A DNA stretch of 64,000 nt from Chloroflexi bacterium OLB13. Lineage in GTDB: Bacteria; Chloroflexota; Anaerolineae; Aggregatilineales; Phototrophicaceae. The stretch is from assembly GCA_001567485.1 (NCBI GenBank), contig JZRA01000068.1, forward strand, positions 62,001 through 126,000, written 5' to 3'. The position numbers and the translations under genes are program-made. Positions 24,606-59,070 of this stretch are shown in pieces (the stretch's first letter is position 1; each line of letters begins with the position of its first letter). A model generated the notes under the pieces. It did not search any database. It saw only the letters and a program-made list of their open reading frames with translations, and was not told the origin of the DNA.

Positions 24606-25481
24606 ACGTGCCCTCTAGCTGGATGCGTTGTGTATGTTCCCGTCCTGATCGTACTCAATGTTACCGTAGAACGGGCACTTTACACGGCCTATCACGAAAC
24701 ATTAAAGACAGATTAGCACAGCTTTCGCTTACGCGCACGATGTCGCGGCGGTTTGACGGCGGCCTGCTCTCAGCGTGGGTTCACTTTGCGGTGAAGCGTT
24801 GGCGGGTATGCTCGACCGCCGGCGACCGGGGTGAGCAGCCGCCCGCGGGTTGAGTTCGACACTGCTGCGACACGCGTGAACGTGGCACGGTTTTGGACGC
24901 CGTTGGTTCTCGAAAAGTTCCTGCGTGCGCGTATGTGCATGAGCGCATGTGATCGGATGTCGCGACAACCTTACCGATGAGGAAAGCCGCGGATGGATTG
25001 GGCGCAATCTCGACCGATCCGTTTTGGGAACACACAGTGCAGCCGAGTTCGCGGTGTGTCAATGTGCGGTCACGTATAAGCGCAGCAATTGCGCTGCAAA
25101 CTCATCAGGCGGTCGGAATGAGTTGGGCGATGAAGCACGGTGTGTGGTGACTGGACGCGTTCACAGCGTAGGGCAAGCGCCGGTTTATAGGGTGAACGGG
25201 TCGAAATGTCTGGAAGTCCACACAAATCCGCGACCATTTCTTAGAAACGAATCAGGCGCAATTACGGACAAGTATTGAGCCATCAGGTACTTCTTTCACC
25301 CTGTGAGGGTTTCGGAAATCGGCTGTGATTCGATAGTATTGAACCGATCCCGTAACTGAGGGAGCGCTAAATCTGGTAGATGATGACCTACTTACGGGGA
25401 AACACTAACCCATACCTCATTGTCGAAAAATAAGTACAGGGTTAAGAGACTAGCCCCTATGGTACGTTAGTCCCCGCCTAC
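24606..25481. other. Long non-coding interval between kinase and WXG100 genes
   Basis: About 880 bases with no supportable gene on either strand. Only short frames with poor coding character are present. The composition is more AT-rich toward 25300-25480 than in neighbouring genes. It must hold the kinase promoter (not identified with confidence) and ends in the WXG100 promoter. A small ACCCT-GTG-AGGGT hairpin lies near 25300. No tRNA or known riboswitch was recognised. Confidence 0.6.
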
Positions 25482-25510
25482 TTGACAGGTTTTGTTTCTC
25501 AGCATACGCT
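25482..25510 (+). promoter_or_regulatory. Promoter of the WXG100 operon
   Basis: Consensus TTGACA (25482-25487), 17-base spacer, TACGCT (25505-25510), then a leader of about 60 bases to the first ATG at 25577. Drives the four small secreted-type proteins as a unit separate from the ATPase gene. Confidence 0.6.
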
Positions 25511-25576
25511 AATGTTCGAACCATCCCCACACCGACATGCAGCAATCGTGCTGCAGGGATCAAAAGGAGAGGCACG

Positions 25577-51200: not shown

Positions 51201-51422
51201 GCGACCCTCTCCCGACGATGATTCAAGACTACAACTCACTCGTGTTATTACAATAAAGTTACAATTGAGCACTCAAAGAAAAATTGAGGAAGAATAAATG
51301 GTCTCACAAACAGCACCTTAACCTAAATCAAACCTATAGTCCGCGTTATTGGAGGTACCAAAGTACTTGGGTTAAGCTATTCATACTCATCGAGCATGCT
51401 CTTGTGCGGGAGACAACACAAA

Positions 51423-54044
51423 ATGTCACCTCAGCGGTTGAAAAAGGATTTGGTCGTAATCAGCAGCGCCGGCCATGATGCTGAGTTCGCCCACCGGTTA
51501 AAAGAAGCGTTAAGCGACATTTACGAGGTGTGGTATTACAAAGACTCCATGCCCGTCGAGCATAACGGCTGGGATGAGAAGATCGATGAGGCGTTGAAGA
51601 AAGCGCGATTCTTTATTGGCGTCCTTTCGAGTGCTTCGGTGAAGTCCGAATACGTCCGGCAGGAATGGCGCTGGGCCGTCACTGAAGGCAAACACAATCA
51701 CGGCCTGATCTTCATGACGGTACAGGCCGAGCCGGCCGATCCCGGTCATCTCTACGGCGGCTACACATGGACGGACTTCTATAATCGTCCGTTCGACGTC
51801 GCCCTTGCGGAACTGCGCAGCCGGATGCGCCATGCCCTGCGCCGCAAGATTACCGCAGCGGTCGATGCCGTGTCCAATACCGACCCGCATCGGACGTATC
51901 TGCGCACGCTGTGGAGCCGTATCTCTACCATGCTGCATCACCTCATCATCTCGTCGCTTGAGGCGGATCCGATCGACCTTGAAATGGACAGCGTGGACGA
52001 TGTTGTGGACGACAATGCGCGCACGCAGCCGTTCGTCGACCTGATGTTCAAGCGCATTGGCTATGGAGAGGAGTTCGCGACACTGGGCGATGCGTTCGCG
52101 TTCTATGAGCGCCGTCTGCTCTTGCTCGGTATGCCGGGAAGCGGCAAGACCGTAACCGGCCTGATGCTGATCCGTGACGCGATCTTGGATCGTCTGGACA
52201 ACCCCGATGCGCCGATCCCTATTCTGGCGAACATTCAGAGCTGGGATGGGCGCACGCCGCTCGTCGATTGGCTCAACAGCTATCCGTACACGCCGCGAGA
52301 CACGATCGATCTGGCGGAGAGTGGCAAAGCGCTGATCTTCTTCGATGGGCTGGACGAGTTGAGCGATCACACCGTGATGTCCAGCACCGAAGATCCGTAT
52401 CGTATCCACCGTCAGTTCATGGCGCAGATTCCGCGGAACTGCCCCGTGCTGGTGACCTGCCGCAACGAGGATTATGAGCGCATCAGGTCTCGTATTCCGC
52501 TCAATGGCGGCGTGCTGCTGTCCCCCCTGAACAATGACCAGATCCGCCGGTTCTTGGGTCGTGTCCCCGAACTGTTCGAGCTGGTTCAGGATGACCCCGA
52601 CCTGATGAACATGATGCGCACACCGCTCATCGCCTCGCTGTTCGCGTTTACGTGCGAACGCATGTCGCCGGAAAATCGTGATCGTCTCATCAACAACAAG
52701 AACAACGCGCAGTTGTTTCGCGAGGAGTTGATTGCCGCATATATCATGGAACTGTACAAATTCGAACGCCGCCGCCGCCCTGAGAACACGCTGCCCGTTC
52801 CGGTGCTTCGCCTGATGGAAGCACTCGGACGCGTGGCGATGCGGAATGCGGCCAACTTCATGTCGCGCACCAACTTGTTGTCCGAAGGTGACCTCAATCT
52901 GCTCAGCGCCAATGTCGAGGAGCGCCGCAAGATCAAAGAAATCGCGCTTCAATTGGGCTTGCTGCAGCGGGTGTCGACCAGTCGCTATAAGTTCATTCAC
53001 CTGATGGTGCGGGATACGCTGGCGTTCTACTACAGCATTAAACACTGGCGTGAACCCAGTGAATACATGGATCGCTACTGGAGTCCGGCCCTCGCGCTGG
53101 GCCGAATCAAGGATCCACGGGCCACGCGTGTTCTGCGCACCATTCTCAAGGAAGTGCAGTCGGCTATCGTGCGCCGCCACGTTGCGCAGGCGTTCGGCTA
53201 CAACAACGACCGCAAGAGCGTCCCTGATTTGGTGAAACTGCTGGCAGATCCTGAGGACGACGTGCAGGCCGCTGCGGTCGAGTCGCTGGGGGCGATCGGT
53301 GATCCATCGGCGTTTGACTATGTGCTGCCGCTGCTGCGGCGCAGCACAAGCCCAGCGGTCTTGCAGAATGCATGCAGGGCGCTCGGGGCGTTCGGCGATA
53401 CGCGCGCCGTCGAGTATCTCATCGACATGCTGAACAACGAGCACGTTTCGGTCGTGCAGCAGGCAGCGCTCGCGCTGGCACAACTCAAGGCCACACAGGC
53501 GGCCCCGGCCTTGCGCAAGAAACTGTCGACGCCGGAGCACGGCGCGACCTCGACGGTGATTGAAGTGCTCGGACGGCTGAACGATGGTGAGAGCGTGTCG
53601 CATCTGGTGCGGCTGTTGTCGACCGAAACCGCCAACAAGATTCAGGACTGCATTGTGGATGCGCTGCGCCGTATCGCAAGCCCAGACGCCGTTCCGGCGT
53701 TGTGCGATAAACTTGCGTCGACGGAGGAACGGTCGCCTGACTTCCGCGCGAAGGTTGCCGAGGCACTAGGCGCAATTGGCGACACGCGAGCGATCCCGAT
53801 GCTGCTCGAAGCCATCACCAAAGAGGTGCACGAGGCGACTTATTCGTACAATGCGATGCGAGAGGCGCTGCTCAAGCTGGGACACACAAACATCCCGGAA
53901 CCGGAGTACTTTGCGGAGGACGTAGACAGCCGCCTGAATGACACCAACGTCGAAGACCTCATCGACATCAGCCCGAACGTGCGCTGGGATGCGGCTGATG
54001 ACGAAGACAGCGACACAGATAGGTCGCGTGGCACGCCGCTGTAA
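51423..54044 (+). CDS. TIR-NACHT-HEAT protein, STAND/NLR-like immune candidate
   Basis: 873 residues. TIR domain about 7-135 with the catalytic-type Glu E81 in SVKSEYVRQEW (S-x-x-S-x-Y-x-x-x-E pattern of NADase TIRs). NACHT ATPase about 230-400 with Walker A G236-T243 (GMPGSGKT) and Walker B FFDGLDEL (D308, D311-E312). About 540-820 forms HEAT repeats (ADPEDDVQAAAVESLGAIGD and similar). ATG at 51423 has GGGAG upstream; ATG at 51396 has none. By analogy with bacterial STAND proteins, the repeats would sense a phage ligand, NACHT oligomerise, and TIR consume NAD. The gene stands alone after an AT-rich leader, which fits acquisition by transfer. Confidence 0.88.
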   Translation: MSPQRLKKDLVVISSAGHDAEFAHRLKEALSDIYEVWYYKDSMPVEHNGWDEKIDEALKKARFFIGVLSSASVKSEYVRQEWRWAVTEGKHNHGLIFMTVQAEPADPGHLYGGYTWTDFYNRPFDVALAELRSRMRHALRRKITAAVDAVSNTDPHRTYLRTLWSRISTMLHHLIISSLEADPIDLEMDSVDDVVDDNARTQPFVDLMFKRIGYGEEFATLGDAFAFYERRLLLLGMPGSGKTVTGLMLIRDAILDRLDNPDAPIPILANIQSWDGRTPLVDWLNSYPYTPRDTIDLAESGKALIFFDGLDELSDHTVMSSTEDPYRIHRQFMAQIPRNCPVLVTCRNEDYERIRSRIPLNGGVLLSPLNNDQIRRFLGRVPELFELVQDDPDLMNMMRTPLIASLFAFTCERMSPENRDRLINNKNNAQLFREELIAAYIMELYKFERRRRPENTLPVPVLRLMEALGRVAMRNAANFMSRTNLLSEGDLNLLSANVEERRKIKEIALQLGLLQRVSTSRYKFIHLMVRDTLAFYYSIKHWREPSEYMDRYWSPALALGRIKDPRATRVLRTILKEVQSAIVRRHVAQAFGYNNDRKSVPDLVKLLADPEDDVQAAAVESLGAIGDPSAFDYVLPLLRRSTSPAVLQNACRALGAFGDTRAVEYLIDMLNNEHVSVVQQAALALAQLKATQAAPALRKKLSTPEHGATSTVIEVLGRLNDGESVSHLVRLLSTETANKIQDCIVDALRRIASPDAVPALCDKLASTEERSPDFRAKVAEALGAIGDTRAIPMLLEAITKEVHEATYSYNAMREALLKLGHTNIPEPEYFAEDVDSRLNDTNVEDLIDISPNVRWDAADDEDSDTDRSRGTPL

Positions 54045-57863: not shown

Positions 57864-59070
57864 ATGGCCGACTTGTCGACCCGCGCGTCGGACACCCCGG
57901 CGCGCGGGGTTTTTTCTGTCGTGTTGATGCTCACGGTGGCGCGCACGTGTGTCAACATGACGCGTCGCTTCACCTATACGTTCGTGCCAGAGATCGCGCG
58001 CTCGCTGGGCGTTGCCAACAGCGCGGTGCAGAATGCGATTGCGGCGCAAAGCGGCGTGTCGATCCTCAGCCCGTTCGCGGGCGGAATCGCTGACCGATTC
58101 GGCCGCAAGTATGTAATGGCCGGCGCGATGACGGCGTTCGGCATCCTTGCGCTGCTGGGCGCGGCCTTCGCGACTTACAGCGCGTTCTTCCTGATGATGA
58201 TCGGGTTCGGCCTCGGCAAGATGCTGTTCGACCCGGCCGCGCTGGCGTATCTCGGCGACCGTGTTCCGTTCGCAAGGCGCGCGACCGCGGTCGGGATTAA
58301 TGAGATGAGCTGGGGCGGCGCCCTGCTGATCGCCGCGCCGGTGACGGGCCTGCTGTTGGAACGATCGACGCTCTCGGCAGTGCTCGTGGCGTTGGGGATG
58401 GTGAACTTCGCCGGTGCGCTGGCTGTCGTTGTGCTGCTGCCGGCAGATCGGCCGTCCAACGAATCGCGGGCGCTGCGTGTGCGCATCCGTCCGTGGGCGG
58501 TGCTGCGTCATCCCGCCGTGGTCGCGTCCGCGCTCTATGCCGGGTTGAACGCAGCAGCGAACGAACTCGTGTTTATCAACTACGGCGCGTTCATGGATGC
58601 CAGCTTCGGACTGGCGCTGTCGGCGCTGGGGTTCGTGACCATCGCTATCTCGCTGGCGGAAGGCGTCGGCGAGGGGGTCGTCGCGACGCTCGGCGACCGG
58701 CTCGGGACGAAGCGGCTTGCCCTGACCGGACTCGCGATTGCGGCGGCGTGTTACGGTGCGCTTCCGCTGTTTGCCAGCTCGCTCACACTGGCTACCGTTG
58801 GCATCTTTTTTGTTGTTCCTCGGATATGAGGTCGCCGTTGTCGCTGCCATCCCGCTGTACACCGAGCTGGTTCCCGGCCAGCGCGCATCGGTGCTGGGCA
58901 CGATCATCGGGTTTATCGCGCTCGGTCGGTTCTCCGGCGGCGTGATCGGCGGCGCGTTGTATGCCGCGGGCGGCCCCGGCATCATCGCGGCTGCTGCGGG
59001 TGTGACGGCGCTGATTGCGATGTTTGTTCTGGCCCGATGGGTACGCGTCTCAACTGGAGGTAAGGAATGA
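57864..59070 (+). CDS. MFS transporter, frameshifted at a T-run
   Basis: The first frame gives ten helices of an MFS transporter (GGIADRFGRKYVMAGAMTA between helices 2 and 3) and breaks at TTTTTT near 58806-58811. Removing one T gives GIFLLFLGYEVAVV and the last helices, ending at 59070 with about 401 residues, the normal length. It is thus one gene with an extra T, as in the EccC-type gene. Drug efflux is the usual role of close families; substrate unknown. Its stop overlaps the next ATG by 4 bases. Confidence 0.82.

What the first reader, a model, noticed from the sequence alone, without database searches (positions are those of the whole stretch)
51423..54044. Lone TIR-NACHT-HEAT protein, possible phage defence
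Intact TIR with a catalytic-type Glu, intact NACHT Walker motifs and HEAT repeats in place of the more usual TPR or LRR sensor. The gene has no partner and sits after an AT-rich leader between housekeeping genes, like a defence gene cassette.
Basis: partly seen in the sequence, partly recalled or inferred. Interest (0 to 1): 0.7.

Follow-up and report, generated by a model that had tools for sequence, protein, structure and literature searches.

The report
Solitary bacterial NLR-type immune receptor
An uncultured Anaerolineae bacterium carries a single gene built like the immune receptors of animals and plants (effector, switch, repeat sensor), but its effector domain has lost residues that its relatives almost never lack, so it may not act the way the rest of its family probably does.

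Summary
The reported protein is real. One intact ORF (51423-54044, 873 aa) has an N-terminal TIR, a complete NACHT switch and about nine HEAT repeats. Its predicted NACHT region matches animal NLR structures, and its TIR matches SPARTA, SARM1 and AbTir NADases. It belongs to a family of lone TIR-NACHT-HEAT genes in one order of Chloroflexota (Anaerolineae): strong matches in 22 of 154 genomes, often multi-copy, about 30% identical, absent beside the same flavodoxin gene in both congeners. That patchiness fits an accessory conflict gene. I found no defence-island enrichment around 23 family members, no relatives on phages or viral contigs, and no full-length ones on plasmids.

The catalytic Glu (E90, counted from the upstream ATG) is kept. 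But the pocket Asp, present in 61 of 65 other TIRs and needed in SARM1 (D594) and Cat1 (D33), is Tyr48; the Tyr/His of the FISY/FISH motif is Ser24; and the Phe before it is Val. NADase activity of this copy is therefore doubtful, although NACHT and winged-helix motifs are kept.

Closest validated system: the E. coli P4-satellite TIR-NLR (TIR-STAND-TPR). New variant of a known kind; phage defence is plausible and untested.

The parts
51201..51422 (+). AT-rich leader of the gene (41% GC; window 62.5%)
   Evidence: no sigma-70-type promoter match there
51408..51412 (+). GGGAG, probable ribosome-binding site for the start at 51423
   Evidence: sequence
51423..54044 (+). TIR-NACHT-HEAT protein gene, 873 aa (882 aa if started at ATG 51396; residue numbers in this report use the 882-aa form)
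51447..51815 (+). TIR domain, residues 18-140; folded alone with pLDDT 93
51465..51467 (+). Ser24, where 64 of 65 other TIRs have Tyr or His (FISY/FISH motif)
51537..51539 (+). Tyr48, where 61 of 65 other TIRs have Asp (SARM1 D594 and Cat1 D33 position)
   Evidence: function of the Asp
51663..51665 (+). Glu90, catalytic-type Glu aligned with SPARTA E77
52068..53075 (+). NACHT nucleotide-binding core, winged helix and helical domains, residues 225-560
52128..52151 (+). Walker A, GMPGSGKT
52332..52361 (+). Walker B, ..FFDGLDEL
52992..53006 (+). FIHLM motif of the winged-helix/helical region with the conserved His535
53076..53900 (+). HEAT repeat array, residues 561-835, probable sensor
53907..54041 (+). 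acidic C-terminal tail, low confidence (probably disordered)
   Evidence: pLDDT under 50

Best explanation
A single-protein bacterial NLR: an accessory conflict (most likely antiphage) receptor. Inferred cycle: the HEAT superhelix binds an invader product or a disturbed host protein; the NACHT module exchanges nucleotide and oligomerises; the clustered TIR domains then act. In most family members that output is probably NAD+ cleavage and arrest of the infected cell. In this copy the catalytic Glu remains but pocket residues are replaced, so its TIR output is probably weakened, changed in product, or reduced to assembly. Shown here by computation: domain order, preserved NACHT and winged-helix motifs, TIR fold, the pocket substitutions, the patchy multi-copy distribution. 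Inferred: ligand, oligomerisation, enzymatic output, phage defence.
For: Architecture. The full-length model's best Foldseek hits are animal NLRs (NLRP2, NLRP14, NLRP3, NLRP7), with plant RPP1 further down; residues about 163-600 align with NLRP and NLRC4 NACHT modules at Z about 15-17 (rmsd 5-9). The family profile also matches NLRP5 by sequence across NACHT to WHD, E 8e-6. The TIR model best matches SPARTA (Z 18.6, rmsd 2.1 over 131 residues), then SARM1, TIR-1 and AbTir NADases. Walker motifs and Glu invariant in the family. Accessory and often multi-copy: strong matches in 22 of 154 genomes, several each in G089, G068 and G070; not next to the flavodoxin in either congener. Fast evolution: mean family identity NACHT 47%, HEAT 32%; end branches near 2 for the window and its congener protein against a median of 0.67; unit duplications in relatives' HEAT arrays, 99 and 180 bp periods. 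Precedent: a single-gene TIR-STAND-TPR protein gives antiphage defence (PMC9122126).
Against: No defence-island association in 23 loci examined, no phage or viral-contig relatives. Pocket Asp, FISY Tyr and Phe replaced in this copy; 10 of 20 family-conserved TIR positions changed, against 9 of 42 in NACHT and 0 of 10 in WHD. No experiment on any family member is known to me.
Confidence: 0.68

Rival explanations
1. The TIR is a fully working NADase and the substitutions are harmless: an ordinary abortive-infection receptor that depletes NAD+.
For: Catalytic Glu and the pocket aromatic (W59; F or W in 62 of 65 other TIRs) kept; confident TIR fold closest to NADase TIRs. Cat1 D33A lost toxicity in cells but kept part of its activity in vitro.
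Against: SARM1 D594E lacks NADase activity, and Y568A and D594A reduce it; Cat1 D33A is non-toxic in cells; V21, S24 and Y48 are found at those positions in none of 65 other TIRs.
Confidence: 0.35
2. The TIR has become a non-catalytic assembly or signalling module, or makes a different product, so the protein works through a partner elsewhere in the genome.
For: Lineage-specific pocket loss with preserved NACHT/WHD motifs in an intact ORF with ordinary codon usage; a second TIR-NACHT exists in the same genome and a TIR-FGE protein in a congener.
Against: Catalytic Glu kept, which a pure scaffold would not need; no partner gene next to it.
Confidence: 0.4
3. Early decay: the gene is no longer under selection and the TIR is simply degrading.
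For: One of the longest branches and the highest number of deviations among 25 family members.
Against: Uninterrupted 873-codon frame, ordinary codon usage, Walker and WHD motifs kept; deviations concentrated in the TIR.
Confidence: 0.15
4. A STAND regulator of a cellular process (development, stress, cell death) unrelated to phages.
For: Lone gene among metabolic genes; no defence-island enrichment; STAND NTPases also have non-immune roles (general knowledge).
Against: Patchy, multi-copy, fast-diverging family, and TIR-STAND precedent in antiphage defence.
Confidence: 0.25

Closest known systems
TIR-NLR of P4-like satellites in E. coli (Rousset et al. 2022, PMC9122126)
   Same: Single gene, N-terminal TIR, central STAND NTPase, C-terminal helical repeats.
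   Different: Sensor is TPR there and HEAT here; carried on phage satellites there, chromosomal with no mobile context here; TIR pocket altered here. Its sequence was not retrieved, so no direct sequence comparison was made.
Bacterial NLR-related (bNACHT) proteins, e.g. bNACHT25 (PMC12169576)
   Same: Central NACHT with N-terminal effector; standalone.
   Different: bNACHT25/32 have a DNase effector and an NCH1 domain, clade 14 has SNaCT; here TIR and HEAT.
TIR NADases: SPARTA TIR-APAZ, SARM1, AbTir, Cat1
   Same: TIR fold and catalytic Glu.
   Different: Pocket Asp replaced by Tyr and FISY/FISH Tyr/His by Ser.
Animal NLRs (NLRP3, NLRP2, NLRC4) and plant RPP1
   Same: Predicted NACHT-WHD arrangement; order effector-switch-repeats (RPP1 also TIR first).
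   Different: LRR sensors there; the relation is of fold and distant sequence, not of system.

Membership tests
Bacterial NLR / bNACHT proteins | NACHT-clade STAND NTPase with Walker A and B | tested here: met
   Pfam NACHT above cutoff, invariant motifs, NLRP5 profile match, structure
Bacterial NLR / bNACHT proteins | N-terminal effector and C-terminal repeat sensor in one protein | tested here: met
   TIR 18-140, HEAT 561-835; that these act as effector and sensor is inferred
Bacterial NLR / bNACHT proteins | Antiphage activity | not testable with these tools
   needs phage challenge
TIR-NLR of Rousset et al. 2022 | TIR-STAND single-gene protein | tested here: met
TIR-NLR of Rousset et al. 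2022 | C-terminal TPR sensor | tested here: not met
   HEAT, no TPR match
TIR-NLR of Rousset et al. 2022 | Residence in phage/satellite hotspot | tested here: not met
   no phage or viral-contig relatives, no full-length plasmid relatives; metabolic neighbours
TIR NADase | TIR fold | tested here: met
TIR NADase | Catalytic Glu | tested here: met
   E90 aligned with SPARTA E77
TIR NADase | Pocket Asp (SARM1 D594, Cat1 D33) and Tyr/His of the FISY/FISH motif | tested here: not met
   Y48 and S24; roles
TIR NADase | NAD+ cleavage | not testable with these tools
   needs assay
Avs/AVAST | Similarity to known Avs proteins | tested here: inconclusive
   no Avs model matched in PADLOC at E 0.1, but absence of a match does not exclude distant relation

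The most novel reading that the evidence does not exclude
An order-restricted, expanding family of bacterial TIR-NACHT-HEAT receptors in which HEAT arrays are the diversified recognition surface, and in which one lineage has exchanged NADase output for a non-catalytic or chemically different TIR signal, comparable with the split between enzymatic and scaffold TIRs in animals.
Probability: 0.3. Interest if true: 0.6.

Novelty: new variant of a known kind. Interest (0 to 1): 0.42.

Why it matters
If it works as inferred, TIR effectors in bacterial NLRs are coupled to HEAT as well as TPR sensors, and Anaerolineae keep expanded, fast-changing receptor families outside defence islands, where island-based discovery would miss them. 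The pocket substitutions give a natural test of how far a TIR in an NLR can drift from NADase chemistry.

Tried and rejected
Defence island: PADLOC and Pfam on 70 neighbours of 10 relatives and on 132 neighbours of 13 more stretches, with PADLOC on 127 control proteins from the same genomes (control stretches chosen arbitrarily); no enrichment seen, so rejected (the tool lists only the first 25 families). Recent foreign acquisition by composition: codon usage and GC3 are ordinary, only the leader is AT-rich. Phage or viral carriage: none; plasmid hits are partial NACHT matches in cyanobacteria. Flavodoxin as a partner: it is conserved in the genus and family without this gene. Sigma-70-type promoter in the leader: none found. 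Literature string 'TIR-NACHT' gave one amphioxus paper only; the Cell 2023 bNACHT paper is not held. The VIA-align list for the whole model is dominated by HEAT/ARM rows, so the TIR was folded and searched alone. DNA-level tandem repeats in the window's own HEAT array: none of note.

Full report
What is there. The window lies in G000, a 4.2 Mb, 148-contig genome. Its congener G002 carries a 24,333-base contig that corresponds by length and match to the record JALONW010000011.1, 'Anaerolineae bacterium isolate Prado087', so the organism is placed in Chloroflexota, class Anaerolineae. Pfam finds TIR_2, NACHT and HEAT. No PADLOC or NCBIfam model describes the whole protein.

Structure. AlphaFold2 on an alignment of 13 family members gave mean pLDDT 77, with HEAT above 90 for most of its length and the last 45 residues below 50. 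Foldseek's best hits are animal NLRs, with plant RPP1 further down. VIA-align places residues about 163-600 on NLRP and NLRC4 NACHT modules at Z 15-17, rmsd 5-9, and the HEAT array on alpha-Rep proteins at Z about 20. The TIR folded alone reached pLDDT 93 and matches SPARTA TIR-APAZ best, Z 18.6, rmsd 2.1 over 131 residues; TIR-1, SARM1 and AbTir follow at Z 14.7-15.4.

Family. Close matches are not found: the best full-length relatives are about 27-33% identical. A TIR-NACHT profile finds strong matches (E 1e-100 or better) in 22 of 154 genomes of the order, up to several per genome. Full-length members in the named collection are all Anaerolineae, Ardenticatenia or unassigned Chloroflexi; NACHT-only relatives are wider. 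The tree puts the window protein with G002, G030 and G007 proteins (99/98), on long branches; many deeper forks are weak and long branches make the placement approximate. TIR-NACHT proteins without HEAT, some with C-termini that look transmembrane, and a kinase-NACHT occur in the order, so effector and sensor parts are probably exchanged around the NACHT.

Context. The flavodoxin downstream is conserved in the genus (70-73%) and in several family genomes, without this gene beside it: in G001 a transporter-permease-like gene precedes it, in G002 at least 356 bases of other sequence do. In G002 the flavodoxin to acyl-CoA dehydrogenase interval holds a TIR-FGE gene where the window has a trypsin-like and a hypothetical gene. 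So this neighbourhood varies between species. Neighbours of other members are ordinary genes, not visibly richer in defence models than controls.

The TIR pocket. Across 65 other TIRs from these genomes, the window protein alone has V at 21, S at 24 and Y at 48. Spacing from the motif Ser to this position (25 residues) and to the Glu (67) fits Cat1 S7, D33 and E74 (26 and 67) and SPARTA (27 and 69), and AbTir aligns WYD to WYY directly. In Cat1, D33A abolishes toxicity in cells and lowers activity in vitro (PMC12162218). SARM1 D594E lacks NADase activity (PMC9381744), and Y568A and D594A reduce it (PMC8266388). Equating the window residues with these is an inference from alignment. In a leave-one-out count on 25 members, the window protein deviates at 10 of 20 conserved TIR positions, 9 of 42 NACHT and 0 of 10 WHD; its relatives L014 and L009 also show divergent TIRs (9 and 6 of 20), so part of this is a subclade trait, but V21, S24 and Y48 are its own.

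Interpretation. What it works like: an NLR, by order of parts, fold and motif conservation. Membership: it meets the structural definition of a bacterial NLR, does not meet the TPR and phage-hotspot features of the Rousset TIR-NLR, and fails one tested feature of canonical TIR NADases. Defence against phage is the most likely role because of the distribution, divergence and precedent, but nothing here shows it. HEAT as the sensor is inferred from position and from its lower conservation and unit duplications in relatives; lower conservation of repeats is common and is weak evidence by itself.

Verdict. A sound observation with one important overstatement. A new variant of a known kind, moderately interesting.

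Noticed in passing
L060:1138-2511 (congener G002): TIR fused to a formylglycine-generating-enzyme-like (FGE-sulfatase) domain, between flavodoxin and acyl-CoA dehydrogenase genes; FGS domains are described in conflict systems of multicellular bacteria (PMC7159879).
   Followed up: partly
window 57864-59070: A major-facilitator transporter gene appears split by a frameshift near 58800 (two overlapping frames continue one another).
   Followed up: partly
L070:4412-6436 (own genome, contig C89): Second TIR-NACHT protein of the same genome, distant from this one and cut by the contig end.
   Followed up: partly
L011, L013 and L092 HEAT regions: HEAT arrays with DNA-level tandem repeats (99 to 198 bp periods, up to 92% matches), a sign of recent repeat-unit duplication in relatives; absent in the window gene.
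   Followed up: partly
L016-L019, L029, L023, L030: Related TIR-NACHT or NACHT proteins whose C-terminus looks transmembrane instead of HEAT, and a kinase-NACHT (L030).
   Followed up: no
L060:61-220: Sequence resembling a cobalamin riboswitch upstream of the flavodoxin in G002, recognised by eye only.
   Followed up: no
window 25221-25520: Second most AT-rich stretch of the window (about 45% GC), not examined.
   Followed up: no
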